Shown: positions 30,354 through 55,770 of the stretch, in pieces
How positions within the stretch are numbered: position 1 is the first letter of the stretch
Layout: each line of letters opens with the position of its first letter
From: Hyphomicrobiales bacterium
Lineage (GTDB): Bacteria; Pseudomonadota; Alphaproteobacteria; Rhizobiales; Rhizobiaceae
Length of the DNA stretch: 64,000 bases
Reading direction: 5' to 3'
Assembly (NCBI GenBank): GCA_900469615.1
Contig: UBYA01000020.1
Location: 1-64,000, forward strand
The notes under the pieces: model-generated
Seen by the model: the letters and a program-made list of their open reading frames with translations, nothing else
What the model was told of the DNA's origin: nothing
Database searches by the model: none
Made by a program: the position numbers and the translations under genes

Positions 30354-30360
30354 AAACGCT

Positions 30361-31232: not shown

Positions 31233-31292
31233 TTATTATCAGCATGTTAAAAAGTGGAGCGGCCACATGGAATCAAGCAGAGAGGTAGACTT

Positions 31293-31304
31293 TTTAAGCT
31301 TAAA
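31293..31304. promoter_or_regulatory. Shared palindrome, site 1
   Basis: TTTAAGCTTAAA is a perfect 12-bp palindrome, 117 bp before the aminotransferase gene. It is the best copy of a motif found in front of several operons of the island (see 36585, 45365, 53269, 53399). The size and AT-rich symmetry suit a MarR-type operator. Confidence 0.6.
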
Positions 31305-31420
31305 CTTTGTCCTTGAAATGCAGCCGTTTTTGGATAACCATTCGAAATTGAGGGGTCTTCCGAACGAAAGCTTCCGCAGCCGTTTCAACCCTTCAGCACC
31401 GGATTCCCAGGGGAAATTCC

Positions 31421-32629: not shown

Positions 32630-32710
32630 TACGGCCGCCCGACCGGGCGGACGAGAATACTGCGGGCGAGAGGAAAAGCCTGCAGCCGTAACCAGAGGGA
32701 GACCAAGAAA

Positions 32711-33508: not shown

Positions 33509-33532
33509 TCAAAAGATCATCATCGAAATGAA

Positions 33533-33559
33533 CTACGCCGGTCGCAACGACCGGCGTAG
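33533..33559 (+). other. Strong intercistronic hairpin
   Basis: CTACGCCGGTCG pairs perfectly over 12 bp with CGACCGGCGTAG across a CAA gap. It lies between the binding-protein and permease genes with no U-run. It probably stabilises the 3' end of the binding-protein message, giving more binding protein than permease. Confidence 0.7.
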
Positions 33560-33603
33560 ATATGGAAACCTTATCCCTGTCTTCGTTGCGCGCGGGAGTG
33601 CCA

Positions 33604-34278
33604 ATGTCTTTCGTCGATACCTTCCTCAACTCCGACGTCATGATCTCGGCTTTCCCGCAGCTGCTGCGCGGGCTCTGGATGACGATCGCGCTCGGCGTTG
33701 TCAGCATCCTGATCGGCGTGACCGGCGGCCTCGTCATCAGCCTGATCCGCCTCTATGCCCCCAGGCCGCTGCAGCTGCTGATGGTCGCCTATATCGATAT
33801 CATGCGCGCCATGCCGATGCTGGTCGTATTGATCCTGATCTACTACGCCCTGCCCTTCGTCGGCGTCAGCTTCTCGGCCTGGTGGTCGGCCATTCTCGGC
33901 TTTTCCATCGTCCTTGCCGCCTATTCGGCCGAAGTCTTCCGCTCAGGGATCGAAAGCGTGCCGCGCGGCCAGTTCGAAGCGGCCGCCGCTCTCGGCATTC
34001 CCTTCCTGATCACGCTCTACAAGGTCGTACTGCCGCAGGCGGTCCGCATCGTCATCCCGCCGACGACAAGCAACTGCGTTTCGATGTTCAAGGACACCTC
34101 GCTTGCCTCGACCGTGGCCTTGCCGGAATTGCTGAAAGAGGGGCAGAACGCGCAAGGATTCTATGCCAATCCCTCGCCGCTGATCATGGCCGCGGTGATC
34201 TACGTCATCCTGCTCTGGCCGATGGTGCGCCTCGTCAGCGTGCTGGAGAGGAAATTCAAGAGCGAGCGCGCCCGATAA
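33604..34278 (+). CDS. Amino-acid ABC transporter permease (HisM/GlnP family)
   Basis: A 224-residue inner-membrane permease with about five helices and the EAA-type cytoplasmic loop (GQFEAAAALGIPFLITLYKVVLPQA) that contacts the ATPase. I prefer the ATG at 33604 (GGGAGTG upstream); an in-frame ATG at 33562 would add 14 residues and starts right after the hairpin. It pairs with the family-3 binding protein. Only one permease is present, consistent with a homodimer, and no ATPase gene follows: the next gene is convergent. Confidence 0.88.
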   Translation: MSFVDTFLNSDVMISAFPQLLRGLWMTIALGVVSILIGVTGGLVISLIRLYAPRPLQLLMVAYIDIMRAMPMLVVLILIYYALPFVGVSFSAWWSAILGFSIVLAAYSAEVFRSGIESVPRGQFEAAAALGIPFLITLYKVVLPQAVRIVIPPTTSNCVSMFKDTSLASTVALPELLKEGQNAQGFYANPSPLIMAAVIYVILLWPMVRLVSVLERKFKSERAR

Positions 34279-34349: not shown

Positions 34350-34865
34350 TCAATCGAAGTCGGCACCGGAAAGATGATTGCTCACCGATGACTTCACCGC
34401 GCCGATATCCCGCCAGAGCTCGCTGACGATCGCAGGATCGACATCCGCCATCATGTCGCGCAGCCAGCCCTCATGGGCAGCGGCCATGGCGCCGAACAGC
34501 GTCTCGCCCTTGGCCGTCAGCTTCGCGACCGTCACCCGCCGGTCGCCGTCGGGCGTTACGCGCAACACGAGCCCATCCGTCTCCAGGCGTTCGACGAGCC
34601 CGGTGACATTTCCGTTCGTGACCATGGTTCGCTTGGACAGTTCGCCGAGCCGCAGGCCGTCACGCTCGCGGTAGAGCTGCGCCATCAGGTCGAACTGCGG
34701 CAAGGTCGCCCCGAACTCGTTGCGCAGCCGGCGGCGGATTTCCTGCGAGATCAGCTTCGTCGTGGAAAGCATGCGCAGCCAGAGCCGCAGCTCCAGCTTT
34801 TTGCCTTCCTGCGTTCCCTGAACGATGATCTCCAGGTCAACGGTTGCACTCTCGGACTCTGTCAT
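34350..34865 (-). CDS. MarR family transcriptional regulator
   Basis: A 171-residue winged-helix regulator from the ATG at 34865 (GAGGCGACG upstream). The frame is open to 34949, but the extra 28 residues are not family-like. The recognition region includes LGELSKRTMVTNGNVTGLVERLE and the wing DGDRRVTVAKLTAKG. It lies just downstream of a CrtI-like FAD oxidoreductase gene on the same strand. A TTTGA/TCAAA palindrome sits between the two, so it may have its own autoregulated promoter. MarR proteins often respond to aromatic acids or their CoA esters. Confidence 0.88.
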   Translation of the reverse strand: MTESESATVDLEIIVQGTQEGKKLELRLWLRMLSTTKLISQEIRRRLRNEFGATLPQFDLMAQLYRERDGLRLGELSKRTMVTNGNVTGLVERLETDGLVLRVTPDGDRRVTVAKLTAKGETLFGAMAAAHEGWLRDMMADVDPAIVSELWRDIGAVKSSVSNHLSGADFD

Positions 34866-34921
34866 GACGTCGCCTCGATCTACGTTCCACATCGTTCGCC
34901 TATGCGATCTAGGGAGCAATA

Positions 34922-34935
34922 TTTGAAATGTCAAA
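34922..34935. promoter_or_regulatory. Palindrome upstream of the MarR gene
   Basis: TTTGA, AATG, TCAAA: perfect 5-bp arms 57 bp before the MarR start codon and just past the stop of the FAD oxidoreductase gene. Likely autoregulatory site. Confidence 0.5.
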
Positions 34936-34961
34936 GGTTTGGACGTCAAGTCGCGCGACTG

Positions 34962-36533
34962 TCACTTCGCCAGCATTTTCGCCAACATGAAACCGGAGCC
35001 GGCCCCCGTCCCCGCACCCGGCCATGTCGAGGCGCCGCACATGAACAGCGAACCCACCGGCGTCTTGTAGCGCGAGTAGCCGGCAACGGGCCGGAAAAGG
35101 AAATTCTGGTCGAGATGATGGCTGCCCGAGAGGTTGTCGCCGCCGACAAGGTTCGGATTCTCGCGTTCGAGATCGATGGGCGAGAACACCGAACGTCCCA
35201 ATATCTTGCCGCGCAGACCCGGAGCGTAGCGTTCCATGATATCGAGCACGCGTTCCGCGTATGTATCCTTGATCTCGTCCCAGCTTGCGCCGCTGATTTC
35301 GCCGGCGGCGTCGCCGTGGAATTCCGCCGGCAGCACGCGCACCTGGATCCAGAGCGCATGTTGCCCCGCGGGAGCGCGGGAGGGATCGATGGCGGTGGGC
35401 TGTCCAACCACCAGTGCAGGCTCCGCCGGCAGCAGGCCCCCCATCGCCTCGGCATAGACACGCGACATCATCTCCAGATCCGGCGCGATATGCACATAGG
35501 CGAAACTCTGGAGCGCCTTGCCAGCCAGCCAGTCCGGAAGGCCCGAGAGCGCCAGGTGGATCATCATCGTGCCGGGGCCGGCGCGGAAGCGCGAAACCTT
35601 GCCGTCGAATTCCTGCCGCGACGGGTCCTTTTCCAGAAGCGTGCCGAACAGGATCTGCGGATGGACATTGGCGATCACGGCGCGCTTCGCCTCATAACGG
35701 CGCCCGTCGGCAAGAACGACGCCCGTCGCCTTGCCGCCCGTCGTGACGATCCTCTCGACCCGCGTGCCGAGCATCAGCTCGCCGCCCTTGCTTTTCAACA
35801 CCGCCGCCATCGCCTTGATGACGGTATCGGCGCCGCCCTTGCCGATCACCATGCCGAAGGCCTGGTTGGCCATGGATTCGAGATAGGGAAACAGCGCGCC
35901 GCCGGCGACATCCGGTGCGAAATCGAGATGCAGCCCCCAGGCGGCCATCATCGTCTTGAGCTTGATATTCTGGAAGCGCGCGTCGAGAAAATCGCGGGGC
36001 GAGGCAAACAGCATGCGCGCCGTGTCGTAGACCCAGCCCATCCCCTTCTCGCGCCAGGCCTTCCACACGACCTTGGCTGCCGCCATGGAAGGCATGGGCG
36101 AGCCGAGCAGGCCGAAGATATGGGGCGCATCCGCGCCGAACTGCGAGAGCATATTGCGCCACGCCGCAGCATCCTGCGGCGATATCTCGGCAATGGCGCC
36201 CGTGGTCTTTTCAAGGTCGGTGCTGACGCCGAGATAGGTATTGTCGCGAAAGACGCTCGCGAAGCAATCCGCGGCGGGAACGAAGCCCAACCCCTCGGCC
36301 GTCAACTCGTTCTTGTATTGAGCGAAGAAAGCCGAACCGGCGAACATGGAAAGGTTCATGGCGCAAAGATCGTGCCGGAATCCGGGCAGCGTCACCTCGC
36401 GGGTCTTGACCGCACCGCCGGCCTCGGCATTGCCCTCGATGACGGCAACCTTCCAGCCTTTGGAGGCCAAATGGACCGCTGCCGCCAGGCCATTATGGCC
36501 GGCCCCCACGACAATCGCATCATAGCTCATCAC
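34962..36533 (-). CDS. CrtI/phytoene-desaturase-like FAD oxidoreductase, paralogue A
   Basis: A 523-residue NAD(P)/FAD-dependent oxidoreductase of the phytoene-dehydrogenase-like group. The FAD-binding GAGHNGLAAAVHLASKGW loop is at about residues 8-25, and the C-terminal FAD motif GAGTGAGSGFMLAK is near the end. It shares motifs with the gene at 37791 (LDPSRAPAG, NLVGGD, the final GxGSGFxLA), so the two are paralogues. They flank a cyclase gene resembling isatin hydrolase, and a shared operator-like palindrome lies 52 bp upstream of this gene. Carotenoid genes are absent, so oxidation of an aromatic or indolic metabolite is more likely. The substrate is unknown. Confidence 0.8.
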   Translation of the reverse strand: MMSYDAIVVGAGHNGLAAAVHLASKGWKVAVIEGNAEAGGAVKTREVTLPGFRHDLCAMNLSMFAGSAFFAQYKNELTAEGLGFVPAADCFASVFRDNTYLGVSTDLEKTTGAIAEISPQDAAAWRNMLSQFGADAPHIFGLLGSPMPSMAAAKVVWKAWREKGMGWVYDTARMLFASPRDFLDARFQNIKLKTMMAAWGLHLDFAPDVAGGALFPYLESMANQAFGMVIGKGGADTVIKAMAAVLKSKGGELMLGTRVERIVTTGGKATGVVLADGRRYEAKRAVIANVHPQILFGTLLEKDPSRQEFDGKVSRFRAGPGTMMIHLALSGLPDWLAGKALQSFAYVHIAPDLEMMSRVYAEAMGGLLPAEPALVVGQPTAIDPSRAPAGQHALWIQVRVLPAEFHGDAAGEISGASWDEIKDTYAERVLDIMERYAPGLRGKILGRSVFSPIDLERENPNLVGGDNLSGSHHLDQNFLFRPVAGYSRYKTPVGSLFMCGASTWPGAGTGAGSGFMLAKMLAK

Positions 36534-36929: not shown

Positions 36930-37712
36930 ATGACTGCCAACACCCTCGCCAGCCTCGCCTCGGCCCTGATTTCGGGCTCCGTCAAGGTCGTCGACCTCAC
37001 CGCGCCGCTCGGCCCTGATACTCCGGTGCTCTACCTGCCGCCGCAGTTCGGCAAGAACACGCCCAAGGTCGCGGTCCACACGATCTCCGAATACAATCAG
37101 GACGGCCCTTTCTGGGCCTGGAACTGGCTGGAGCTCGGCGAGCATACCGGCACCCATTTCGATGCGCCCTGTCATTGGATCACCGGCAAGGACAATCCGA
37201 ACAACACGACGGACACCATCCCGCCGCAGAATTTCGTGGCTCCGGTCAACGTCATCGACCGCTCCAAGGAGTCCGCCGCCGATCCCGACTACCTGCTGAC
37301 GGTGGACAGCATCAAGGAATGGGAAGCCCAGAACGGCGAGATCGAAGCCGGCAGCTGGGTGCTGCTGCGCACCGACTGGTACAAGCGCAACGGCTCCACC
37401 GATACCTTCCTGAACGCCGATGAAAACGGCCCCCACTCTCCCGGCCCGACGGCCGAGGCGATCGAGTATCTGCTGAGCAAGGGCATCATCGGCTGGGGTT
37501 CGGAAACGGTCGGCACCGATGCCGGCTCGGCCGGCGGCATGAACCCGCCCTTCCCCGCGCACAACCTCATGCACAAGGCCAACCGCTACGGCCTCGCCAG
37601 CCTCTCCAACCTGGATCAGCTTCCGGCCAAGGGCGCGGTGCTGATCGCCGCTCCGCTGAAATTCGTCAAGGGCACCGGCTCGCCGGTTCGTGCACTGGCA
37701 TTGATTGCATGA
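36930..37712 (+). CDS. Cyclase-family metal hydrolase, isatin hydrolase-like
   Basis: A 260-residue Mn/Zn-dependent hydrolase of the cyclase/kynurenine-formamidase family. The metal motif EHTGTHFDAPCH gives His72, His76, Asp78 and His82, offset by one residue from the ligands I recall for the isatin hydrolase of Labrenzia. The tryptophan-rich lead-in FWAWNW and the Ser224 region (GLASLSNLDQLP) also fit isatin hydrolase better than bacterial KynB, which is shorter (about 210 residues). Isatin hydrolase opens the isatin ring to isatinate. AAGGGGAACC precedes the ATG. The FAD oxidoreductase B gene follows 78 bp on, and an anthranilate operon lies 16 kb downstream. Confidence 0.75.
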   Translation: MTANTLASLASALISGSVKVVDLTAPLGPDTPVLYLPPQFGKNTPKVAVHTISEYNQDGPFWAWNWLELGEHTGTHFDAPCHWITGKDNPNNTTDTIPPQNFVAPVNVIDRSKESAADPDYLLTVDSIKEWEAQNGEIEAGSWVLLRTDWYKRNGSTDTFLNADENGPHSPGPTAEAIEYLLSKGIIGWGSETVGTDAGSAGGMNPPFPAHNLMHKANRYGLASLSNLDQLPAKGAVLIAAPLKFVKGTGSPVRALALIA

Positions 37713-37718
37713 TAGGCT

Positions 37719-37760
37719 GGAAAGGCCGGAGTCCGGGGGCGAATTAGACTCCGCCTTTCC
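37719..37760 (+). other. Long intercistronic hairpin after the cyclase gene
   Basis: GGAAAGGC plus GGAGTC (one bulged C at 37727) pair with GACTCC plus GCCTTTCC, a 14-bp stem with a 13-nt loop starting 7 bp after the cyclase stop. No U-run follows. It may limit read-through or stabilise the cyclase message. Confidence 0.6.
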
Positions 37761-37790
37761 ACATATCCTGGCTGTGAGGGGCAGCGCGCA

Positions 37791-39380
37791 ATGGGCGATC
37801 ATGATTACGTCATCGTCGGCAGCGGCATCAATGCGCTTGTCGCAGCCGCGATGCTTGGCAAAAAGGGCCATAAGGTGCTCGTCCTCGAGCGCAGCGACCG
37901 CATCGGCGGCTGCCTGCGCACCGAGGAAATCACCGAGCCCGGCTTTATCCACGATGTCATGGCAACGACCATGGTGCTGTTCCTCACCTCGCCGGCCTAT
38001 GGCGCCATCGGCAAGGATCTGGAGGCGCGGGGCCTGGAATTTGCCCATGCCGATCTGCCGACAGGCGTGTTGCGGCCCGACGGATCGCATGTCATCTTTT
38101 CCAAGGACAGGCGGCGAAACATCGCCACCTTCGACGAACTGTCGCTCGGCGATGGGCAGACCTTCTCCCGCGAGATGGATGCGCTTGGCGCCGATGCGCC
38201 ATTCCTGTTTTCCCTCCTCGGCGGCGCGCTGTGGTCCGGATCGACGCTGAAGACCGTCGGCAAGCAAGGCTGGAGCCGCGGGTTGCGCAAGCTCGCGGCC
38301 TGGTTCGGCGATGCCCTGACGCCGGCGCGCGGCTATCTGGAAACCAATTACAAGTCCGAGGACATCCATGCGCTCTGGGCGCCCTGGGTGCTGCATTGCG
38401 GCCTCGGGCCGGAAAGCGCCTATTCCGCCGAAATGTTGAAGGTGATCGGCTTTGCGATAGAGCTGGCCGGCGCACCGATCGTCAAAGGCGGTGCCGCGAA
38501 ACTGCTGACGGCCTTCGAACGGCTGATTACCGATCATGGCGGAGAAATCCGTCTCGGCGCCGATGTCGAGGCCATCCTTCCAGGCCCCGGCCGCCGCGCC
38601 GCCGGGGTACGCCTTGCGAACGGCGAAACGCTGGGAGCGAAGGCCGGGGTCATCTGCTCCGTGACGCCCAACCAGCTCTACGACCGGCTGGTGGCGGATT
38701 GGCCGGACCCGCTACCGGCCGAGGTCAGGTCCGGCGTCGCCAATTACCGTTACGGCAAGGGCGACATGCAGATTCACTACGCCCTTTCCGAGCCGCCGCG
38801 CTGGAAAGCCGATGCCGAACTCGGCAAGGTGGCGCTGCTGCACCTGACATCCGGCCTCGACGGCGTCTCGCGCGCCGCCAACGAATGCGAGCGCGGACTA
38901 TTGCCCGCCGAGCCGACCGTCTGCGTCGGGCAGCCCGTCGCACTCGATCCCAGCCGCGCGCCGGCGGGAAAATCGATCCTCTGGCTGCAGCTTCCCGAAG
39001 CGCCACGGCATATCAAGGGCGACGCTGCGGGCGAGATCGCAGCGCCGCCGGACGGCCGCTGGACGGAAGAGGTGCGCGAACGCTATGCCGACCGCATAGA
39101 AGCGCTGCTCGCCAGCCACATCGAGAACTTCGCGGAGATAAAGCTCGCGCGCCGCGCCTACTCTCCGGGCGATCTGGAAGCGATGAACATGAACCTCGTC
39201 GGCGGCGACCCTTACGGCGGCTATTGCGGCCTCGACCAGTTTTTCATCTGGCGCCCTTTCAAGTCATCTGTTAACCACCGCACCCACATAACAGGCCTGT
39301 ACCACATCGGCGCGTCGGCGCATCCCGGTCCAGGCCTCGGTGGAGGCTCCGGCTTTCTGCTCGCATCATCGCTGAAGTAA
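37791..39380 (+). CDS. CrtI/phytoene-desaturase-like FAD oxidoreductase, paralogue B
   Basis: A 529-residue NAD(P)/FAD-dependent oxidoreductase. The FAD-binding loop VGSGINALVAAAMLGKKG is at about residues 8-25, a typical second-strand ERSDRIGGCLRTEE follows, and the C-terminal FAD motif is GPGLGGGSGFLLA. It is a diverged paralogue of the enzyme at 34962. It is probably co-transcribed with the upstream isatin-hydrolase-like gene and the downstream MarR gene (23 bp). By context it may oxidise an indole-ring intermediate before or after isatin; no substrate evidence exists in the sequence. Confidence 0.8.
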   Translation: MGDHDYVIVGSGINALVAAAMLGKKGHKVLVLERSDRIGGCLRTEEITEPGFIHDVMATTMVLFLTSPAYGAIGKDLEARGLEFAHADLPTGVLRPDGSHVIFSKDRRRNIATFDELSLGDGQTFSREMDALGADAPFLFSLLGGALWSGSTLKTVGKQGWSRGLRKLAAWFGDALTPARGYLETNYKSEDIHALWAPWVLHCGLGPESAYSAEMLKVIGFAIELAGAPIVKGGAAKLLTAFERLITDHGGEIRLGADVEAILPGPGRRAAGVRLANGETLGAKAGVICSVTPNQLYDRLVADWPDPLPAEVRSGVANYRYGKGDMQIHYALSEPPRWKADAELGKVALLHLTSGLDGVSRAANECERGLLPAEPTVCVGQPVALDPSRAPAGKSILWLQLPEAPRHIKGDAAGEIAAPPDGRWTEEVRERYADRIEALLASHIENFAEIKLARRAYSPGDLEAMNMNLVGGDPYGGYCGLDQFFIWRPFKSSVNHRTHITGLYHIGASAHPGPGLGGGSGFLLASSLK

Positions 39381-39403
39381 CACGTTCCGGAGGAGTATCG
39401 TCG

Positions 39404-39910
39404 ATGGAAGAGCGGTTTTCAGGCACCGTTTTGAGGCGCACGCGCGATGAAAACGCCACGCGCCCGACCATGGGCGAAATCGGCCTCAATCACTTCGCAC
39501 CCTATCTGATGAACCGGCTGATGGCGCGCTGGAACGCCAACCTGTCGGAAGAGCTGCGCGAATACGATATGACGACCGCCAAGATGCGGGCGCTGGCGGT
39601 CCTCTGCGTCTCCTCCAGCGTCACCATCAACGAGCTCTCCGTCTTCGCCGTGACCGAACAGTCGACGATGAGCCGCACGCTCGACTCGCTCGAGCAGCAG
39701 GGCTACATCCGCCGTCAGCCCCGGGTCGAGGATATGCGCATCCGCGACGTTTCCATCACCGAGGAAGGCCGCACCGCCTTCGAGAAGGTGTGGCCGACCA
39801 TGTACGACCTGTTCCTGCAGATGTTCGACGGCGTCGAAGAGGCCGAATATCGGGCCTTCATCTCGACCCTGCACAAGGTACTGCACAACATCCGCAAGCA
39901 TGAGATCTGA
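39404..39910 (+). CDS. MarR family transcriptional regulator (cyclase operon)
   Basis: A 168-residue winged-helix regulator with recognition region INELSVFAVTEQSTMSRTLD followed by the wing VEDMRIRDVSITEEGR. It has an extended N-terminus of about 25 residues. It is the last gene of the cyclase/FAD oxidoreductase B unit and ends in a strong hairpin. Being embedded in the catabolic operon makes it the leading candidate to bind the TTTAAGCTTAAA sites of the island; that is inference, and the MarR at 34350 is an alternative. Confidence 0.88.
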   Translation: MEERFSGTVLRRTRDENATRPTMGEIGLNHFAPYLMNRLMARWNANLSEELREYDMTTAKMRALAVLCVSSSVTINELSVFAVTEQSTMSRTLDSLEQQGYIRRQPRVEDMRIRDVSITEEGRTAFEKVWPTMYDLFLQMFDGVEEAEYRAFISTLHKVLHNIRKHEI

Positions 39911-39942: not shown

Positions 39943-41253
39943 TCAGCGTTTGTTCGGAATGAGCGCCGTTGCCAGTGCCGCGATGGCGGCGACGATGGCG
40001 AAAACATAGAAATTCCATTCGGGACCGACGTTCAGGCTGGCGATATATCCTCCCATCAGCGGGCCGGAGAGCGCGCCGATGCGCGAGAAGCTCAGCGCCC
40101 AGCCGGTGCCGGCCGCCCGCACGAAGGGCGGAAGGTAGGCGGCAAGATAGCCCGTGAGAATCAGCGAGGCCGAAACCGTGCCGAAGCCGGCAATGGCCAC
40201 GACTGTATAGTTCAGCCAGATGGAGCCCTTGAAGGCGAGAAGCGCGATACCGACTGCGCCGAGCAGATAGGAGAGCATCACGGTCAACCGCACGCCGAAA
40301 CGATCCGCCCATTGGCCAAGCACGATACCTCCGATCGCCGAAGTCAGGCTGAAAACCGCGAGAAACAGCAGGCTGTCGCCAAGGTCGTAGCCGCTCTTGC
40401 GCATGATCTGCGGCAGCCACTGAGCAAGCCCGTAGACCAGAAGCAGCCCCATGAACAGGGCAATCCAGAAGCAGGCGGTGGCAAAGGCGTTTCTCGGCGA
40501 AAAGATCTCGCCCAGCACGGCCCGCCAGCCGAGGCCGGTTTCCCGCAGTGCGCCCCCTGGGGGAACGGCGACGCCGAGCCTGGCGGCCAGCCGTCTCGCG
40601 CTTTCGCTCCGTCCGCGCGCCACGAGGAAATCGAGGGATTCGGGAAGCAGCCACGCCATGAAGGGCACGAACAGCACCGGAAGCGCGCCGACCAGAATGA
40701 CGGGCCGCCATCCGTAATCCGGCAACAGCCATCTGCCGACGAGCGCCGCGGCGAAAAGGCCGAGGGAATAACCGGAATACATGATGCCGTAATTGACGTT
40801 CTTCCTTGCGGCCGGCGAATATTCGATGGTCAAGGCCGCTGCCAGGGGGATGATGCCGCCGAGCCCGAGGCCTGCCGCAAAGCGGCTGACGCCGAACCAT
40901 GCCGGCGTCGGGGACCATGCGGTTATTGCCGTGCAAAGGGCAAACAGCGAAAGGCAGGCCAGAAACATCGGCTTGCGGCCATAGAGATCGCTGAGCGTGC
41001 CGACGACGATGCCGCCGACAAGCATGCCGAAGACGGTGTAGCTGCCCATCGCTCCAAGCTGAAGCGGCGACAGATGCCAGACGTTGTCCGTGGACAGCGC
41101 CGGCAGGATGGCGCCGAGGACGCCGACATCGTATCCCTCCGCAAAGATCGCCAGCCAGCAGATGAGCACGACGACAAGGCTTTTGGCATGCGAGATTTCT
41201 CCGCCGCCAGGACTTGAAAGGTCCCTCGCGACGCCGTTTCGAAGACTGTCCAT
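39943..41253 (-). CDS. MFS transporter, aromatic acid:H+ symporter-like
   Basis: A 436-residue inner-membrane transporter with twelve helices. An EGYDVGVLGAILP first helix and GTLSDLYGRKP between helices 2 and 3 are typical of the AAHS group (PcaK, BenK) that imports aromatic acids with protons. The ATG at 41253 has GAGGGATAATC upstream; the open frame extends to 41307 without family-like residues. It lies downstream of iorA/iorB on the same strand after a hairpin. It probably imports an aromatic or indolic acid such as anthranilate or an indole carboxylate. Confidence 0.85.
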   Translation of the reverse strand: MDSLRNGVARDLSSPGGGEISHAKSLVVVLICWLAIFAEGYDVGVLGAILPALSTDNVWHLSPLQLGAMGSYTVFGMLVGGIVVGTLSDLYGRKPMFLACLSLFALCTAITAWSPTPAWFGVSRFAAGLGLGGIIPLAAALTIEYSPAARKNVNYGIMYSGYSLGLFAAALVGRWLLPDYGWRPVILVGALPVLFVPFMAWLLPESLDFLVARGRSESARRLAARLGVAVPPGGALRETGLGWRAVLGEIFSPRNAFATACFWIALFMGLLLVYGLAQWLPQIMRKSGYDLGDSLLFLAVFSLTSAIGGIVLGQWADRFGVRLTVMLSYLLGAVGIALLAFKGSIWLNYTVVAIAGFGTVSASLILTGYLAAYLPPFVRAAGTGWALSFSRIGALSGPLMGGYIASLNVGPEWNFYVFAIVAAIAALATALIPNKR

Positions 41254-41311
41254 GCGATTATCCCTCTTGGAAGTTATCAGCCTCGACCAATATTGCCCGC
41301 TTCCCAAGCAT

Positions 41312-41333
41312 ACGGGGCGGACTGCCGCCCCGT
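41312..41333 (-). other. Hairpin between iorB and the MFS gene
   Basis: ACGGGGCGG and CCGCCCCGT form a 9-bp stem around ACTG, 19 bp past the iorB stop codon on the minus strand. No T-run follows, so it could be partial termination or mRNA protection. Confidence 0.5.
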
Positions 41334-41352
41334 TCGGCCGATCCGGTCGTGG

Positions 41353-42912
41353 TCAGAGCGTCGCGACCGTTTTTAGCGCGCCGTCGAGTGCAGCACCCTT
41401 CTCGTCCAGAAGAGCCGCCTGCCGCAGCCGCCGCATCCAGGCGGCGCCGTCTTCCCGGTCGCGCAGCAGCGGCAGGGCCGACATGACGCGATCGAACTTG
41501 GAAAGCCCGCGCGCATGCGTATCGGAATAGCCCTTGACGAGGCGGCGGTTGCCGAGCACTTCGACGGCGAGATCGTAATTCACGGCCAGCAGATTGGACG
41601 CTGCTGTCAGCCAGGCCTCGCGATGCTCCACCTCGCGCGCGTGCCGCAGCGTGCCGCGACGAATACGGCGTAGCGCCGAAACCATGTAGAGACCAAGGAA
41701 CCAGAACAGCGTGCCGGTCTGAACGCGCCGCCCCTTGTTGATGAAGCGGTCGAGCCGGGCAAACAGGCGCGGCCGGCTTTCGATCCAGAGACCCATGCCC
41801 TTCGGCATCGTGCCGCAGACTTCGTCCATGCGCGGATGCATGTACTCGGTCATGTAGACGATCTGGTCGTCCCTGGCGCCGACCTCCTTGCGAACGCGCT
41901 CGAAGCGGGAGCCGCGCACCTTCAGGTCTGCGACGCGGATGACATCGTCGTAAGCCATGGCGATGGCGACATATTTGGCGGCCTGAACGGTGAAGGCGAA
42001 ATCCTTGCTCGCACCGCCGGCCTTGCGATCCAGTGCGTGAAGCGCCGCGACACGGCTCAGATACTCGTCGGCATAGGCCGGGTCCTGAAAGTCGGTGAGC
42101 TTCTTGGCGCCGGCAAACAGCAGCGGCCACGCCATTTCCGGAAATTCGGAGCGGATGCGGTTGACCAGACGGTCCAGCGCCGGATGACCGGCCGTCTCCG
42201 GCAGGGCATCGAAGTGCTTCGGCGGCGTGGCCGAGACAGCATCTCGCGGCTTGTCCTTGACCCTCTCGAACGCGGCATTGAATGCCTTGAGGCTGGGCTC
42301 GATGCCCTTGCCGCCGGCACGGATCATCGCTTCGAAAGCCTGCTTGCCGAAAGGCAGCGCCCCGGAGCCGGCGAGCGCGCCAAACATGGAGGCGGAAATC
42401 ACGCTGCCGTTCCTGACGGCCATCGTTTCCATATCGAAAGCGATGGTGCGCTTGGCAGCGAAATCCGTAGCATCGACCACCACCTCGGCATTGCCGATGC
42501 CATCGCCCGGCTTTTCCTTTTCCGCGACCGCAAAGGAGCGGTGCGTCGAGGCGATCAGCAGCGTCTTGTCCGGCGTGACGAGGCCACGCAGCACCGAGCG
42601 GCCGGCCTCCATCAGCTCCGCGGCCATGACGACATCGACATCGCCGGGCGTCGGCATCAACGAGAAGATCGGCTCGTGACCGTCGCGGGCCGGCAGCATC
42701 TCGATATAGTAGATCGTCGCGCCGGTACGCTGTGCCACGCCGGGCACGGACGTCGTCTGCGCCATCCAGCCTTCGGCTTCGGCAAGGTCGACGATCCAGT
42801 CGGCCAGTACGCCGCCGCCCTGCCCGCCCATGGCGAGGATGGCAAGCGACAGCGGCTTGTCCGTGGAAAGTCTGTTCGCACCGAGATCACTCATGTTCAC
42901 ATGCTCGTTCAT
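41353..42912 (-). CDS. iorB: Indolepyruvate oxidoreductase subunit beta (IorB) with C-terminal extension
   Basis: A 519-residue protein. The N-terminal pyruvate/ketoisovalerate oxidoreductase gamma-type domain (AILAMGGQGGGVLADWIVDL, about residues 28-220) matches IorB. The C-terminal half (about 240-500) is the extra DUF6537-type domain seen in aerobic proteobacterial versions. With IorA it oxidatively decarboxylates aryl-pyruvates, classically indolepyruvate, to the arylacetyl-CoA. It starts 9 bp after iorA. The MFS gene follows past a hairpin. Confidence 0.9.
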   Translation of the reverse strand: MNEHVNMSDLGANRLSTDKPLSLAILAMGGQGGGVLADWIVDLAEAEGWMAQTTSVPGVAQRTGATIYYIEMLPARDGHEPIFSLMPTPGDVDVVMAAELMEAGRSVLRGLVTPDKTLLIASTHRSFAVAEKEKPGDGIGNAEVVVDATDFAAKRTIAFDMETMAVRNGSVISASMFGALAGSGALPFGKQAFEAMIRAGGKGIEPSLKAFNAAFERVKDKPRDAVSATPPKHFDALPETAGHPALDRLVNRIRSEFPEMAWPLLFAGAKKLTDFQDPAYADEYLSRVAALHALDRKAGGASKDFAFTVQAAKYVAIAMAYDDVIRVADLKVRGSRFERVRKEVGARDDQIVYMTEYMHPRMDEVCGTMPKGMGLWIESRPRLFARLDRFINKGRRVQTGTLFWFLGLYMVSALRRIRRGTLRHAREVEHREAWLTAASNLLAVNYDLAVEVLGNRRLVKGYSDTHARGLSKFDRVMSALPLLRDREDGAAWMRRLRQAALLDEKGAALDGALKTVATL

Positions 42913-42921
42913 ATCGCCCTC

Positions 42922-45377: not shown

Positions 45378-45452
45378 CATTCCGACAATAAATCGCCAGC
45401 GGCAGGCGGGCCTCATTGCTTTTTTGCCGCTCAACAGGGGAACGGAGTGACC

Positions 45453-49982: not shown

Positions 49983-50833
49983 GCGTTTCCGACAGCCTTC
50001 TCTCTGCCAGGGGCATCGAGGTAACCTATGGTGCCAAGCCGCATCTCTTCGGCCCGTCGGGCCTTGGCATCAAGGTGCTGCACGGTATCGATATCGACAT
50101 CCGCCGCGGCGAGACCGTCGGCATCGTCGGCGAAAGCGGCTCGGGCAAGACGACGCTCGGCCGCGCCCTGCTGCGGCTGGTCGACGTCACCGCGGGCAGC
50201 ATCCATTTCGACGGCAAGGACATCACCCGTCTACCCGATGCCCGCATGCGGCCGCTACGCCGCCGCATGCAGATGATCTTTCAAGACCCGATGGCCTCGC
50301 TCAATCCGCGCCATACGATCCGCCGTATCCTCGCCGAACCGCTGCTCCTGCATGGGCTGGCTTCGAACCGGAAGGACGCCGAGCGACGCGTCGCCGAAAT
50401 CCTCGATCGCGTAACGCTGCCGCAGGTCTGTCTCGACCGCAACCCGCATGAGCTTTCCGGCGGTCAGCGCCAGCGCGTCGGCATCGCGCGGGCGGCGCTG
50501 CTGAAGCCGGACTTCGTGCTTGCCGACGAAATCGTCTCCGGTCTCGACGTATCGACCCAGGCACAGGTGCTCAACCTGCTGAAAGAGCTTTCGCGCGACC
50601 TCGGCCTTTCCATGGCCTTCATCAGCCATGATCTGTCCGTTATCCGCGCCATTTGCGACCGCGTCTATGTGATGCGCCATGGCCGCGTCGAAGAGCAAGG
50701 CGAGTGCGAACGCGTCTTCACCGCACCCGCCTCGGCCTATACGCGCATGCTGCTCGACGCCATCCCCTTGCCGGAGGTCGACCCGCACTGGCTGCGCCGC
50801 GAGAGCGTGGCCGCAGAAACGTCCGATGCCTGA
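49979..50833 (+). CDS. ABC transporter ATP-binding protein (DppF-like)
   Basis: A 284-residue ATPase. Walker A GESGSGKTT, Q-loop MIFQDPMASLNPRHT, signature LSGGQRQR, Walker B DFVLADEIVSGLD and H-loop AFISHDLSVI are all present. In Walker B the usual ADEPVSALD is ADEIVSGLD, a variation common in this subgroup. It is the last transporter gene; a VOC-protein gene follows 77 bp on. The pair of ATPases makes this a complete five-component importer. Confidence 0.93.
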   Translation: MSVSDSLLSARGIEVTYGAKPHLFGPSGLGIKVLHGIDIDIRRGETVGIVGESGSGKTTLGRALLRLVDVTAGSIHFDGKDITRLPDARMRPLRRRMQMIFQDPMASLNPRHTIRRILAEPLLLHGLASNRKDAERRVAEILDRVTLPQVCLDRNPHELSGGQRQRVGIARAALLKPDFVLADEIVSGLDVSTQAQVLNLLKELSRDLGLSMAFISHDLSVIRAICDRVYVMRHGRVEEQGECERVFTAPASAYTRMLLDAIPLPEVDPHWLRRESVAAETSDA

Positions 50834-50910
50834 CCGAAGGGCGAAGCGAAGGCTTGAACAGGGGTAGCGGCGAGCGCGCAACAATACCCGCCTACAGAAA
50901 GGGAACGACT

Positions 50911-51504
50911 ATGAAAGACCCGGAGTCAAAGGCAACGAACGTTTCAACTGTTGGACCGGGAAAGGCAAAAGCCGCCGGACTGCCCGGCCTTCGCGGTCAC
51001 GACCATACGGGACTTACGGTGCCGGACATGAAGCAGGCGATCGATTTCTTCGAGAATGTGCTGGGCTGCAAGGTCGCAATGTCGTTCGGGCCGTTTGCCG
51101 ACGACAAGGGCACCTTCATGACCGATCTGCTTGGTGTCGACCCCAAGGCTGAAATAAAGCAGATAGTGCAAGTTCGCTGCGGTTTCGGATCGAACATAGA
51201 GCTGTTCGAATATTCGGCTCCCGATCAGCGCGACCTCAAGCAGAGGAACAGCGACATCGGCGCGTTCCATATCTCGCTCTACGTCGACGACATCGATGCG
51301 GCAAAGGCTTATCTCGACAGCAGGAACGTTGAAACGCGGTTAGGGCCGCTCCCGATCAACGATGGCCCGGCCGCAGGCCAGTCGATCCTTTACTTCCAGG
51401 CACCATGGGGTCTGCAATTCGAGGCAATCAGCTATCCCAGGGGCATGGCCTATGAAAAAGATGCCGAAACCGTGCTGTGGAATCCGAAAGATCCAGCCAA
51501 GTGA
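50911..51504 (+). CDS. VOC (glyoxalase/dioxygenase superfamily) protein
   Basis: A 197-residue protein. The ATG at 50911 follows AAAGGGAA; the open frame back to 50653 overlaps the ATPase gene. One VOC module starts GHDHTGLTVPDMKQAIDFFE, with a second half ending LYFQAPWGLQFEAISYP. His near GHDH, a Glu in NIELFEY and Glu in FEAI are possible metal ligands. The family includes glyoxalases, extradiol dioxygenases and epimerases, so a role on an aromatic or CoA intermediate of the island is possible. A perfect hairpin ends the unit. Confidence 0.75.
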   Translation: MKDPESKATNVSTVGPGKAKAAGLPGLRGHDHTGLTVPDMKQAIDFFENVLGCKVAMSFGPFADDKGTFMTDLLGVDPKAEIKQIVQVRCGFGSNIELFEYSAPDQRDLKQRNSDIGAFHISLYVDDIDAAKAYLDSRNVETRLGPLPINDGPAAGQSILYFQAPWGLQFEAISYPRGMAYEKDAETVLWNPKDPAK

Positions 51505-51537: not shown

Positions 51538-53151
51538 TCAGCTACGCAGGCGGAAGCGCTGTATCTTGCCGGATTCCGTCTTCGGCAAGGCATCCACGAA
51601 GACGATGGAGCGCGGATACTTGTAGGGCGCGATGACCGCCTTGACGTGATCCTGCAGCGCCTTGACGAGCAGATCCGAGCCGATGACGCCGGGCGTCAGG
51701 ACCACATGGGCCTGAACGATATGGCCGCGGTCCTCGTCCGGCTTGCCGATGACGGCGCATTCCAGCACGTCGGAATGTGAAAGAAGCGCGGCTTCCACTT
51801 CCGGCCCGGCGATATTGTAGCCGGCCGAAAGAATGATGTCGTCGGAACGCGCGGCGAAATGAAAATAGCCGTCCTCGTCCTGAATGAAGCTGTCGCCGGT
51901 CAGGTTCCAGCCATCGCGCACATAATCGGCCTGGCGGTGATCTGCGAGATAGCGGCAGCCGATCGGCCCGCGAACCACCAGTTTGCCGATCGTACCGCGC
52001 GGGACCTCGTTCATCTCGTCATCGACGACGCGAGCCTCGTAGCCCGCCAGCGGCTTGCCCGTGGAGTTCGGCTTGGCGTCGGACAGCCGGTTCGAAATGA
52101 AGATATGCAGCATTTCCGTCGAGCCGATGCCGTCGAGGATCGGCTTGCCGGTCTTGCGCGTCCATTCTTCGAAGATCGGTCCGGGCAGGGTCTCGCCGGC
52201 CGAAACCGCAACTCGAAGCGAAGAGAGATCTGCCCCCTCCTCCATCGCCGCCAGCATGGCGCGATAGGCCGTCGGCGCGGTGAAGCTGATCGTCGCGCCA
52301 TATTCCTGGATAATCTCGACCATGTTCTTCGGCGAGGCGTTTTCAAGCAAGGCCGTCGATGCGCCGAAGCGCAGCGGGAAGACCACCAGACCGCCGAGTC
52401 CGAAGGTGAACGCGATCGGCGGCGAGCCGATGAAGACATCCTCGGGCGTGACCTGCAGCACCTCCTTGGCATAGGCATCGGCGATAATCAGGATATCCCG
52501 ATGAAAATGCATCGTGGCCTTGGGCACGCCGGTCGAACCCGAGGTGAAGCCGAGCAGCGCCACGTCGTCACGCCCGGTCTTGACCGGCTCGAAGCGCACA
52601 GGCTTGTTGAGCGCGATGCGGTCGAGTTCGGCATCGTGATTGGCTGTGCCGTCGAAGCCGACCACCTGCTTCAGGAAGCGGCTGTCCTTCGCCACCGTGA
52701 CCAGTTCCTCGAGCAGCCGCGTATCGCAGAGCGCAAAGGAAATCTCCGCCTTGTCGATAATCTTCGAAAGCTCGCCGGCCCGCAGCATCGGCATGGTGTT
52801 GACGGCAACCGCGCCGACCTTCGTCACCGCCAGCCAGCAGGCAATCATCGCGGGGTTGTTTCCGGAACGGATGAGAACGCGATTGCCGGGCTTGACGCCG
52901 AAATTCTCGACGAGGGCGTGCGCGATGCGATTGGTCCAGTCCGCTAGTTCCTTATAGGTGCGGCGGCGGCCATTGCCGATCAGGGCCACATTGTCGCCGA
53001 AGCCCTTTTCGACCATCCGGTCGCTGAGTTCGAAGCCGGCATTCAACCACTCCGGATAGTCGAAGCCATCCATCAGCAACTCGGGCCATTCGCTGAAAGG
53101 CGGCAGATTGTCCCGCGTGAATGTATCGGTATGACCGGTCGGTCCCAGCAT
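51538..53151 (-). CDS. 2-aminobenzoate (anthranilate)-CoA ligase-like AMP-forming synthetase
   Basis: A 537-residue acyl-CoA synthetase. The P-loop GFTSGSTGVPKATMHFHRD, the A5/A7 region FHFAARSDDIILSAGYNI and the catalytic Lys in PKTESGKIQR are intact. Length and N-terminus resemble benzoate/2-aminobenzoate-CoA ligases. It activates an aromatic acid, forming the AMP intermediate and then the thioester. It is divergent from the 2-aminobenzoyl-CoA monooxygenase/reductase gene, and the 300-bp region between holds two shared palindromes. That pairing makes anthranilate the best substrate guess; benzoate or salicylate cannot be excluded from sequence alone. Confidence 0.85.
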   Translation of the reverse strand: MLGPTGHTDTFTRDNLPPFSEWPELLMDGFDYPEWLNAGFELSDRMVEKGFGDNVALIGNGRRRTYKELADWTNRIAHALVENFGVKPGNRVLIRSGNNPAMIACWLAVTKVGAVAVNTMPMLRAGELSKIIDKAEISFALCDTRLLEELVTVAKDSRFLKQVVGFDGTANHDAELDRIALNKPVRFEPVKTGRDDVALLGFTSGSTGVPKATMHFHRDILIIADAYAKEVLQVTPEDVFIGSPPIAFTFGLGGLVVFPLRFGASTALLENASPKNMVEIIQEYGATISFTAPTAYRAMLAAMEEGADLSSLRVAVSAGETLPGPIFEEWTRKTGKPILDGIGSTEMLHIFISNRLSDAKPNSTGKPLAGYEARVVDDEMNEVPRGTIGKLVVRGPIGCRYLADHRQADYVRDGWNLTGDSFIQDEDGYFHFAARSDDIILSAGYNIAGPEVEAALLSHSDVLECAVIGKPDEDRGHIVQAHVVLTPGVIGSDLLVKALQDHVKAVIAPYKYPRSIVFVDALPKTESGKIQRFRLRS

Positions 53152-53451: not shown

Positions 53452-55770
53452 ATGCGTATCGTCTGTATCGGCGGCGGCCCCGCAGGACTCTACTTCGCGC
53501 TTCTGATGAAGAAGCTCCATCCTGAACATTCGATCCGCGTGGTGGAACGCAATCGCCCCTACGACACCTTCGGCTGGGGCGTCGTCTTTTCCGACGCGAC
53601 AATGGTATCGATGCGCGAGTGGGACCCTGAAAGTGCTGCCGAGATCGAGGATGCCTTCAACCATTGGGACGATATCGAGGTTCTGTTCAAGGGCACGCGC
53701 CAGCGCACCTCCGGCCACGGTTTCGTCGGCATCGGCCGCAAGAAGCTGCTCAATATCCTCCAACGTCGCTGCGAGGCACTCGGCGTCGAGCTGATCTTCG
53801 AAACGGAGGTCGATTCCGATCTCGATTACCCCGACGCGGATCTGGTGATCGGCTCGGACGGCCTCAACTCCAAGATCCGCAATCATTATCCGGAGGTTTT
53901 TCAGCCGGATATGATCACACGGCCGAACCGCTACATCTGGCTCGGCACCAACAAGCTTTTCGACGCCTTCACCTTCGATTTCCGCCGCACCGATCACGGC
54001 TGGTTCCAGGCGCATATCTACAAGTTCGACGATCAGACCTCGACCTTCATCGTCGAGACCACCGAGGAAGCCTATCTCGCCCACGGCCTCGACAAGGTGG
54101 ATCAGGATGGCTCCATCGCCTTCTGCGAGAACCTGTTTGCCGAAGTGCTCGAAGGCTCGTCGCTGATGACCAATGCCCGTCATGTCCGGGGATCGGCCTG
54201 GCTGAACTTCAACCGCCTGATTTGCGGCAAGTGGAGCCATTTCAACGGCAATTCGCATGTCGTGCTGATGGGCGATGCCGCCCACACCGCGCATTTCGCC
54301 ATCGGCTCCGGCACCAAGCTCGCCATCGATGACGCCATCGAATTGACCCGCCAGTTCCAGATCCACGGGCACGAGAAGGACAAGATACCGGCCGTCCTCG
54401 AAACCTACGAGGAAATCCGCCGCGTCGACGTCGCCCGCATCCAGAACGCCGCCCGCAATGCCATGGAATGGTTCGAAGTCGTCGGACGCCGCTATGCCGA
54501 TACGCTCGAGCCGCCGCAGTTCATGTATTCCATGCTCACGCGCTCGCAGCGCATCAGCCACGAGAATCTGAGGCTCCGGGACAAGACCTGGCTCGAAGGC
54601 TATGAGCGCTGGTTCGCCGAGAAATCCGGCCTTACCGTCGGCAACGACCGGTGCCTGCCGCCGATGTTCACGCCCTACAAGCTGCGCGATGTCCAGCTCG
54701 TCAACCGCATCGTCATGTCGCCGATGGCGATGTATTCCGCCGAGGACGGTGTGATGAACGATTTCCACATCGTCCATCTCGGCTCGCGCGCGCTCGGCGG
54801 CGCCGGATTGATCTTCGCGGAAATGACCTGCGTCACCCCGGACGCACGCATCACGCCCGGCTGCCTCGGCCTGTGGAACGAGGAGCAGGTGACGCAGTGG
54901 AAACGGCTTGTCGATTTCGTTCACATGAACAGCGCCGCCAAGGTCGGCATCCAGATCGGCCATGCCGGGCGCAAGGGCGCGACGAAGCTCGCCTGGGAAG
55001 GGATCGACCAGCCGCTCGCCGAAGGCGGCTGGCCGCTGATCTCCGCATCGGCGATCCCCTATCTCAAGAACAGCCAGGTGCCGAAGGCCATGGATCGCGC
55101 CGATATGGACCGCGTCAAGGCCGACTTCATCCGCTCGACGGAACTGGCGGTCGAAACCGGCGCCGACTGGCTGGAGCTGCATTGTGCCCACGGCTATCTG
55201 CTGTCGAGCTTCCTGTCGCCACTGACCAATGTGCGCGACGACGAGTATGGCGGCAGCCATGAAAACCGCGCCCGCTACCCGCTGGAAATCTTCCATGCGA
55301 TACGGGCGATCTGGCCCGCGGACAAGCCGATTTCGGTTCGTCTTTCCTGCCACGACTGGACGGACGGCGGCAACACGCCGGAAGATGCTGCAATCTTCGC
55401 CCGCATGTTCAAGGAGGCCGGCGCCGACCTGATCGACTGCTCTTCCGGCCAGGTCTCGAAGCAGGAAAAGCCGGTCTATGGCCGCCTGTTCCAGACGCCC
55501 TTCTCCGACAAGATCCGCAACGAGATCGGCATCCCGACGATCGCCGTCGGCGCGATCTCGGAGGCCGACCATGCCAATTCGATCATCGCCGCCGGCCGTG
55601 CCGACCTTTGCGCCGTCGCGCGCCCGCATCTGGCGGACCCGGCCTGGTCGCTACACGAGGCCGCCAAGATCGGCCTGACTTCCATTCCCTGGCCGAAGCA
55701 ATATGTTTCCGGCAAGATGCAGTATGAAACCAATCTCGCCCGCGCGGCCGCAGCCGCACCGGCAAAATGA
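53452..55770 (+). CDS. 2-aminobenzoyl-CoA monooxygenase/reductase-like fusion flavoprotein
   Basis: A 772-residue fusion of two flavoenzymes. Residues 1 to about 370 are a class A FAD monooxygenase ([13 protein letters not shown]; second FAD motif [14 protein letters not shown]). Residues from about 395 are an Old Yellow Enzyme-type FMN reductase ([38 protein letters not shown]). This layout matches 2-aminobenzoyl-CoA monooxygenase/reductase, which hydroxylates and reduces the ring to a non-aromatic cyclohexenone CoA ester. Relatives are annotated as salicylyl-CoA 5-hydroxylase/oxidoreductase, so salicylyl-CoA is an alternative substrate. It is the first gene of a long plus-strand operon. Confidence 0.9.

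What the first reader, a model, noticed from the sequence alone, without database searches (positions are those of the whole stretch)
36930..39910. Isatin-hydrolase-like cyclase with a CrtI-like oxidoreductase and MarR: possible undescribed indole-ring degradation module
Seen: a cyclase-family hydrolase with EHTGTHFDAPCH and a Trp-rich lead-in, then a phytoene-desaturase-like FAD enzyme and a MarR gene. A paralogous FAD enzyme is divergent upstream. Known: isatin hydrolase opens isatin to isatinate in indole-3-acetate or indole breakdown. Inference: isatin or a close analogue is an intermediate, and the FAD paralogues may perform ring or side-chain oxidation normally done by a dioxygenase, none of which is visible here.
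Basis: partly seen in the sequence, partly recalled or inferred. Interest (0 to 1): 0.8.

Follow-up and report, generated by a model that had tools for sequence, protein, structure and literature searches.

The report
Isatin-breakdown gene module in Rhizobium
A soil Rhizobium carries a conserved set of genes that most likely breaks down indole-type compounds through isatin, and its neighbours suggest candidate enzymes for two steps of that route that still lack assigned enzymes.

Summary
The cyclase (36930-37712) groups with isatin hydrolase B (PDB 4j0n, E 6e-125; nine of eleven mapped functional residues identical).

Of 398 genomes 25 have the hydrolase. All 14 with a FAD2 homologue and 23 of 25 with this type of IorA are among them. 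Of eleven indole-monooxygenase/SDR loci, four carry IifA (dioxindole to anthranilate) without hydrolase or FAD2, four carry hydrolase plus FAD2 without IifA, three carry neither; two were picked because they had the hydrolase.

Best reading: FAD2 oxidises dioxindole to isatin, the hydrolase makes isatinate, IorAB turns isatinate into 2-aminobenzoyl-CoA. In some loci without IorAB a different thiamine-diphosphate enzyme follows the hydrolase. FAD1, linked to the importer, feeds in an unknown substrate. Nothing was assayed. Against the IorAB step: a Variovorax iad segment without iadAB still gives anthranilate. A new variant of a known kind.

The parts
34350..34949 (-). MarR1 regulator, same strand as and behind FAD1
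   Evidence: ORF; PF01047 44.4 bits
34962..36533 (-). FAD1, CrtI/CrtO-like FAD enzyme; between hydrolase and importer gene in most relatives
   Evidence: gaps
36930..37712 (+). Isatin hydrolase (B type), predicted Mn-dependent, isatin to isatinate
37791..39380 (+). FAD2, CrtI/CrtO-like FAD enzyme, predicted dioxindole to isatin
39404..39910 (+). MarR2 regulator
   Evidence: kept in 57 of 60 full named loci
39943..41307 (-). MFS transporter, aromatic acid/H+ symport type (278 bits, below the cut-off of 418.6)
   Evidence: in 3 of 60 full named loci
41353..42912 (-). IorB-like subunit with DUF6537
   Evidence: NF006179 712 bits against 348; PF20169, PF01558
42922..45075 (-). IorA-like ThDP 2-oxoacid oxidoreductase subunit, predicted isatinate to 2-aminobenzoyl-CoA together with IorB
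   Evidence: TIGR03336 292 bits, below its cut-off of 651; PF02775
45447..50833 (+). Peptide-type ABC transporter: solute-binding protein 45447-46988 (SBP_bac_5), two permeases, two ATPases
   Evidence: binding protein by Pfam; the other four assigned from their translations and by clustering with other loci
50653..51504 (+). VOC (glyoxalase superfamily) protein; ORF limits, true start probably further in
51538..53151 (-). Aryl-CoA ligase, benzoate-CoA ligase-like (363 bits, cut-off 375)
53452..55770 (+). FAD monooxygenase/OYE fusion, family of salicylyl-CoA 5-hydroxylase and (by recall) 2-aminobenzoyl-CoA monooxygenase/reductase
   Evidence: NF006101 1349 bits against 1078; PF01494, PF00724
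55703..62698 (+). SDR, enoyl-CoA hydratase, two acyl-CoA dehydrogenases, thioesterase, enoyl-CoA hydratase/3-hydroxyacyl-CoA dehydrogenase fusion

Best explanation
The locus is an isatin-centred catabolic module. (1) An unknown, water-soluble indole- or oxindole-type compound is imported by the peptide-type ABC transporter and brought to the dioxindole level with the help of FAD1 (inferred, weak). (2) FAD2 oxidises dioxindole (3-hydroxyindolin-2-one) to isatin (inferred, moderate). (3) Isatin hydrolase opens isatin to isatinate (orthology strong; activity not assayed). (4) IorAB, a ThDP-dependent 2-oxoacid oxidoreductase, decarboxylates isatinate (2-aminophenylglyoxylate) to 2-aminobenzoyl-CoA (inferred, moderate). 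(5) The FAD monooxygenase/OYE fusion and the beta-oxidation-type genes carry 2-aminobenzoyl-CoA on (inferred from family). MarR2 and MarR1 probably regulate the divergent arms (inferred from position only).
For: Hydrolase: best solved match is isatin hydrolase B, nine of eleven mapped LaIHA residues identical, the other two as in LaIHB. Co-occurrence in 398 genomes: hydrolase in 25; FAD2 homologue in 14, all 14 with hydrolase (p 2e-19); upper-type IorA in 25, 23 shared (p 7e-33); fusion in 70, 24 of the 25 (p 4e-19). By genus (212): FAD2 in 7, all among the 16 with hydrolase (p 3e-9); upper IorA in 16, 14 shared (p 5e-18). IorA tree: upper type apart from lower type, 100/100. FAD2: four loci with SDR, monooxygenase, hydrolase and FAD2 lack IifA, four with IifA lack hydrolase and FAD2; IifA acts on 3-hydroxyindolin-2-one. 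IorAB: the upper type occurs with FAD loci and with loci carrying ligase, thiolase and SDR genes like IadF, IadG, IadH, and iorAB are markers of iad (via isatin) against iac (catechol) loci in PMC9613470. A different ThDP enzyme directly follows the hydrolase in two Deinococcus plasmids and one Rhodococcus plasmid. FAD1-importer link: DppA in 42 of 47 full loci with FAD1, 0 of 13 without.
Against: No assay. Variovorax iadC-K2, without iadAB, restored anthranilate in a locus deletion (PMC12633357), so IorAB is not needed for anthranilate there. A CoA ligase orthologue of 51% identity or more is present in 20 of 25 hydrolase genomes, which also fits free anthranilate. Two genomes have hydrolase without upper IorA and two the reverse. 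Two of the four hydrolase-plus-FAD2 monooxygenase loci (L063, L083) were found through the hydrolase; with only loci found by the monooxygenase search the split is 2 against 4 (p 0.067; 0.014 with all eight). L054 has hydrolase and IifA within 6 kb. Relatives of FAD1 and FAD2 also occur without the hydrolase nearby. Nine of 60 full named loci have neither FAD gene. The aligned genomes are not independent.
Confidence: 0.55

Rival explanations
1. IorAB works upstream on indolepyruvate from tryptophan (aminotransferase 31421-32629, amino-acid ABC genes 32711-34278) and gives indoleacetyl-CoA; the module is a tryptophan or IAA pathway that happens to pass through isatin.
For: Family name and models; aminotransferase and amino-acid ABC genes lie upstream in the window.
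Against: The aminotransferase cluster is in 22 of 119 loci only. Upper-type IorA tracks the hydrolase over different routes into isatin. PMC9613470 finds iorAB in iad but not iac loci although both degrade IAA. No iad-type ligase, thiolase or Rieske gene was seen in the window genes annotated here.
Confidence: 0.15
2. The hydrolase relative acts on another cyclic amide and the FAD enzymes on another heterocycle; isatin is not the intermediate.
For: FAD1, FAD2 and an importer lie beside hydroxyproline genes in Sulfitobacter indolifex; FAD1-type genes occur without hydrolase nearby in Halococcus, Agrobacterium leguminum and Cedecea; the substrate of the importer is unknown.
Against: The hydrolase lies on the same Sulfitobacter plasmid, with MarR and IorAB; isatin-contacting tryptophans and catalytic residues are kept; hydrolase and FAD2 occur inside indole-monooxygenase clusters.
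Confidence: 0.12
3. IorAB is a side branch: isatinate goes to anthranilate by a separate decarboxylase and aldehyde oxidation, then to the CoA ester by the CoA ligase.
For: Variovorax makes anthranilate without iadAB on the transferred segment and shows C7H7NO, the formula of 2-aminobenzaldehyde (the identity is my inference); ThDP enzyme, ligase and aldehyde dehydrogenase genes beside the hydrolase in Deinococcus and Rhodococcus; ligase in the window.
Against: The Deinococcus/Rhodococcus-type ThDP enzyme had no tblastn match at 1e-8 in the other 133 loci tested with it; IorAB is the ThDP enzyme next to the hydrolase there.
Confidence: 0.18

Closest known systems
Isatin hydrolase B of Labrenzia aggregata (PDB 4j0n, 4m8d)
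   Same: Sequence over 256 residues, metal ligands, base, tryptophan pocket
   Different: Activity of the Rhizobium protein not shown
iad IAA-degradation locus (Variovorax, Bradyrhizobium, Achromobacter)
   Same: Route through isatin and isatinate, IorAB genes, MarR regulation, cyclase-family IadI
   Different: No iad-type oxygenase, ligase, thiolase genes seen in the window; FAD1, FAD2 and a peptide-type importer instead
iif indole cluster (Acinetobacter, Burkholderia)
   Same: FAD2 plus hydrolase relatives stand beside iif-type SDR, monooxygenase and reductase in four loci
   Different: The window genome has no PF17885 monooxygenase; IifA is absent where FAD2 and hydrolase are present in those four loci
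Providencia rettgeri GS cluster (PMC9871250)
   Same: Order SDR, monooxygenase, reductase, PF04199 cyclase, oxidoreductase GS-O, porin as in L083; isatin and C8H7NO3 seen; GS-O function unidentified
   Different: Homology of GS-O to FAD2 not tested; authors take isatin formation as spontaneous and C8H7NO3 as N-formylanthranilate
Indolepyruvate and phenylglyoxylate oxidoreductases
   Same: IorA/IorB domains; phenylglyoxylate oxidation to benzoyl-CoA is the chemical parallel (recalled)
   Different: IorA below the IOR_alpha equivalog cut-off; predicted substrate isatinate
CrtI/CrtO carotenoid enzymes
   Same: Fold of the FAD2 model, FAD motif
   Different: Curated cut-offs not reached; neighbours are aromatic catabolism genes

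Membership tests
Isatin hydrolase (cyclase family) | Closest to isatin hydrolases, not kynurenine formamidases | tested here: met
   419 bits to 4j0n, 299-301 to A types, 23-25 to KynB chains
Isatin hydrolase (cyclase family) | Metal ligands H69, H73, D75; base pair D193-H207; H79; pocket W59, W61, W80 (LaIHA numbers) | tested here: met
   All nine identical
Isatin hydrolase (cyclase family) | Q219 and Y204 of the A type | tested here: not met
   A223 and F208, as in the B type 4j0n
Isatin hydrolase (cyclase family) | Mn-dependent hydrolysis of isatin | not testable with these tools
   needs assay
iad locus | iorAB and MarR present | tested here: met
iad locus | Rieske oxygenase IadDE with ligase, thiolase, SDR-OB genes | tested here: not met
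   Not among the genes of 28.9-62.7 kb scanned by Pfam; PF00848 only on other contigs
iif cluster | Styrene/indole monooxygenase (PF17885) | tested here: not met
   absent from the genome
Indolepyruvate:ferredoxin oxidoreductase | Equivalog cut-off of IOR_alpha | tested here: not met
   292.5 against 650.9 bits
IorB family NF006179 | Subfamily cut-off | tested here: met
   712.4 against 348 bits
Isatinate-specific oxidoreductase | CoA-dependent oxidation of isatinate | not testable with these tools
   needs assay
2-aminobenzoyl-CoA monooxygenase/reductase | FAD monooxygenase/OYE fusion | tested here: inconclusive
   Fusion present; the matching model is named salicylyl-CoA 5-hydroxylase and does not tell the substrates apart
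Carotenoid CrtI/CrtO | Curated model cut-offs | tested here: not met
   FAD2: CrtO 156.8 of 1000, crtI_fam 76.5 of 238; FAD1: 216.7 of 1000, 152.1 of 238

The most novel reading that the evidence does not exclude
A route from an oxindole-type compound to 2-aminobenzoyl-CoA without an oxygenase: FAD1 desaturates the imported oxindole to a 2H-indol-2-one-type intermediate, water adds at C3 to give dioxindole, FAD2 oxidises it to isatin, the hydrolase adds a second water, and IorAB yields the CoA thioester with reduced ferredoxin. All oxygen before the monooxygenase/OYE step would come from water. The FAD1 chemistry is proposed from desaturase homology alone.
Probability: 0.15. Interest if true: 0.85.

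Novelty: new variant of a known kind. Interest (0 to 1): 0.6.

Why it matters
Isatin and isatinate have long been known as metabolites of bacterial IAA and indole breakdown, but in the passages I saw isatin formation is called spontaneous (PMC9871250) or has no enzyme, and no function is given for iorAB in iad loci (PMC9613470, PMC12633357). If FAD2 and IorAB do what their contexts suggest, both steps get candidate enzymes that can be tested with four purified proteins. The module recurs in Rhizobium, Mesorhizobium, marine rhodobacters and, in part, Azospirillum and Tsukamurella, bacteria of plants, soil and sea.

Tried and rejected
Conserved MarR operator between FAD1 and the hydrolase: no inverted repeat with 8-base arms and at most one mismatch in the window stretch (0 found, shuffled mean 1.26), and no repeat shared by the seven loci looked at.

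'No CoA ligase is needed because IorAB makes the thioester': weakened and not used as support. An orthologue of 51% identity or more is in 20 of 25 hydrolase genomes, and the Alloyangia stretch, whose gene table lists none, has one by tblastn.

Reading the cyclase beside the monooxygenase genes as IifA: rejected for L063, L083, L230 and L234. IifA is a dienelactone-hydrolase-family protein (PMC4577076; the Burkholderia relative likewise); the genes in question are 53-65% identical to the window hydrolase, two of them checked as PF04199.

Tsukamurella tandem FAD genes as FAD1 plus FAD2: rejected. The first is FMO-like with no blastp match to FAD1 or FAD2 at 1e-10, the second is 41% to FAD2.

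More loci of the L083 type in the order of G296: only G296 itself among 247 genomes. PDB sequence search with IorA: no match at 1e-5. The FAD2 structure model confirmed the fold (pLDDT 88, pTM 0.88; best match 4rep) but says nothing certain about the substrate. The second structure job and FAD1 model were not run.

Papers: searches (open-licence PMC only). Seen as passages: PMC6117287, PMC9613470, PMC6221969, PMC12538310, PMC8383072, PMC9871250, PMC13101512, PMC4577076, PMC10934121; PMC12633357 as outline, abstract and passages. None of these passages assigns isatinate to IorAB or dioxindole to a CrtI-like FAD enzyme; other text of these papers and subscription journals were not seen.
Full report
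What is there. The cyclase (36930-37712) is followed by FAD2 (37791-39380) and MarR2 (39404-39910) on the plus strand; FAD1 (34962-36533) and MarR1 (34350-34949) run the other way. Next to them lie an aromatic-acid-type MFS gene, iorB and iorA (39943-45075, minus strand), a peptide-type ABC transporter (45447-50833), and a VOC gene, aryl-CoA ligase, FAD-monooxygenase/OYE fusion and beta-oxidation-type genes (50.7-62.7 kb).

The hydrolase. The best solved match is isatin hydrolase B of Labrenzia (419 bits), then A types (299-301 bits), one other cyclase (103 bits) and kynurenine formamidases at 23-25 bits. Nine of eleven positions named for LaIHA in PMC6117287 (passages) are identical; Y204 and Q219 are F208 and A223 here, as in LaIHB. 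H72, H76, D78, H82, D197 and H211 are invariant in 14 sequences. The genome has two other cyclase-family genes elsewhere.

Who travels with it. The hydrolase is in 25 of 398 genomes at E 1e-60. FAD2 at E 1e-60 hits 14 of 398, all among the 25 (p 2e-19), and 12 of the 14 hold two such genes (at most three candidates per genome were scored). IorA at E 1e-100 hits 29 of 398. I split these by the gap in scores into an upper type (64% identity or more, 25 genomes, three of them matched in two pieces) and a lower type (53-56%, 7 genomes, three of which also have the upper type). The upper type shares 23 genomes with the hydrolase (p 7e-33; G327 and G237 have only the hydrolase, G262 and G019 only IorA); the lower type shares 2 (p 0.066). 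A tree of 34 IorA rows separates the types with 100/100 support (L225 and L245 dropped as short matches). The fusion gene is in 70 of 398 and in 24 of the 25 (p 4e-19). Genomes are not independent: eight of the 25 are of one genus. Counted by genus (212 in all) FAD2 is in 7, all among the 16 with hydrolase (p 3e-9), and upper IorA in 16, 14 shared (p 5e-18).

Order of genes. The one scan of named genomes kept the best 80 of 586 relatives, so it is biased to close ones. Of the 80 loci 60 are full length. At set identity limits (FAD1 45%, FAD2 50%, IorA 60%, IorB 42%, DppA 50%, fusion 45%, ligase 50%, MarR2 35%) FAD2 is in 50, FAD1 in 47, MarR2 in 57, IorA in 58, IorB in 57, the binding protein DppA in 42, the fusion in 24 and the ligase in 1 of the 60; 44 have FAD1, FAD2, IorA and IorB; 9 have neither FAD gene. 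FAD2 lies next to the hydrolase (median gap 68 bp, 67 loci). FAD1 lies between hydrolase (171 bp, 61 loci) and DppA (119 bp, 52 loci); in the window itself DppA is about 9 kb from FAD1. DppA is in 42 of 47 loci with FAD1 and in none of 13 without (p 1.7e-9). The module thus looks layered: hydrolase, MarR and IorAB as core, FAD2 on the hydrolase, FAD1 with the importer.

What FAD2 may do. In the known iif pathway oxygenase and SDR lead to dioxindole (PMC13101512; PMC12538310) and IifA converts it to anthranilate (PMC10934121). In eleven loci with monooxygenase and SDR, IifA without hydrolase or FAD2 is in four (L253, L254, L255, L259), hydrolase and FAD2 without IifA in four, neither in three (L251, L252, L260). 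Selection matters: L063 and L083 were found through the hydrolase; L251 and L252 come from genomes chosen for having it; of 21 records in the monooxygenase search I read stretches of 10, three of which (L256, L257, L258) have no SDR beside the monooxygenase and were not counted. The eight informative loci give p 0.014, the six found by the monooxygenase search 0.067. L054 has a 68% hydrolase and IifA within 6 kb. Since the hydrolase acts on isatin, the step left for FAD2 is dioxindole to isatin. A Tsukamurella plasmid repeats the theme with an FMO-like oxygenase, SDR, a 41% FAD2, IorAB, hydrolase and fusion. The Providencia GS cluster has the order of L083, a PF04199 gene and an oxidoreductase GS-O of unidentified function; C8H7NO2, isatin and C8H7NO3 were observed (PMC9871250). 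C8H7NO3 is also the formula of isatinate; that GS-O is a FAD2 relative is my inference from order and length.

What IorAB may do. Upper-type IorA serves loci with different ways into isatin: FAD loci and loci with genes like IadF, IadG and IadH. PMC9613470 calls iorAB exclusive markers of iad-like against iac-like operons; iad passes isatin, iac ends in catechol. The shared stretch is isatin to anthranilate, where isatinate is the 2-oxoacid. In two Deinococcus plasmids and Rhodococcus R138 the hydrolase is followed directly by a ~547-aa ThDP enzyme, with no IorAB annotated in the two stretches read; it reaches no cut-off among the families shown. In Agrobacterium pusense such a gene is about 4 kb away. 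Of 8 plasmid records with this enzyme 3 have it beside the hydrolase, 1 nearby, 1 (Nonomuraea) on the same record at a distance not examined, and 3 are not on the hydrolase list. Against: in Variovorax the iadC-K2 segment restored anthranilate without iadAB (PMC12633357). The ligase in the window and in 20 of 25 genomes also fits free anthranilate.

What stays open. The imported substrate and FAD1's reaction. The window genome has no PF17885 monooxygenase; of 12 other genomes with a B-type hydrolase 10 lack it and G194 and G197 have it elsewhere. FAD1-type genes also occur without hydrolase nearby, for example behind a luciferase-type monooxygenase and flavin reductase in Agrobacterium leguminum. 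Sulfitobacter indolifex keeps FAD1, FAD2 and an importer beside hydroxyproline genes, with hydrolase, MarR and IorAB about 64 kb away on the same plasmid. Of 18 plasmid records with FAD2 at 53% or more, 17 hold the hydrolase on the same record, 12 of them adjacent; the exception is Mesorhizobium loti pML2037, whose chromosome was not searched.

Verdict. Hydrolase assignment strong; isatin-centred module well supported; FAD2 and IorAB good testable predictions; FAD1 and the substrate unknown. A new variant of isatin-route catabolism, not a new kind of system. I set the confidence of the combined mechanism at 0.55 since the checked selection bias and the Variovorax result weaken two of its steps.

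Noticed in passing
L244:7962-10375; L243:5315-7773: Isatin hydrolase gene directly followed by, and overlapping, a ThDP-enzyme gene in Deinococcus and Rhodococcus plasmids: a possible second way to process isatinate.
   Followed up: partly
L049; L050 and L051: Genomes G265 and G392 carry both hydrolase types, A and B, on one contig about 14 and 25 kb apart; the A copies sit with ligase, thiolase and SDR genes as in iad loci.
   Followed up: partly
L232:7607-21341: Tsukamurella (Actinomycetota) plasmid with SDR, FMO-like oxygenase, FAD2-like gene, IorAB, hydrolase, a nitrilase-related gene and the fusion gene: perhaps the same route for another indole compound.
   Followed up: partly
L231:1514-21250: Sulfitobacter indolifex: FAD1, FAD2 and a peptide-type importer beside proline racemase, hydroxyproline epimerase and aconitase-family genes, away from the hydrolase on the same plasmid. 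Not explained.
   Followed up: no
L239:6215-9572; L133:3669-7596; L076:18185-19276: A luciferase-type monooxygenase and/or flavin reductase near FAD1-type genes or near B-type hydrolase loci: a candidate oxygenase partner of FAD1. A 90% relative is at G000 C21:1074575.
   Followed up: partly
28995-34278: Class V aminotransferase, HpcH/HpaI aldolase, class I aminotransferase and amino-acid ABC genes upstream; kept beside the module mainly in Rhizobium loci.
   Followed up: partly
L234:17785-20979: FAD1 and DppA of Alloyangia pacifica T6124 are interrupted (matches fall in two frames); sequencing error or decay not decided.
   Followed up: no
L236:8614-15566: Mesorhizobium loti pML2037 has FAD1 with importer, molybdenum-hydroxylase-like genes, a cupin/Ldh/RidA/FAH set and FAD2, but no hydrolase on the plasmid.
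   Followed up: no
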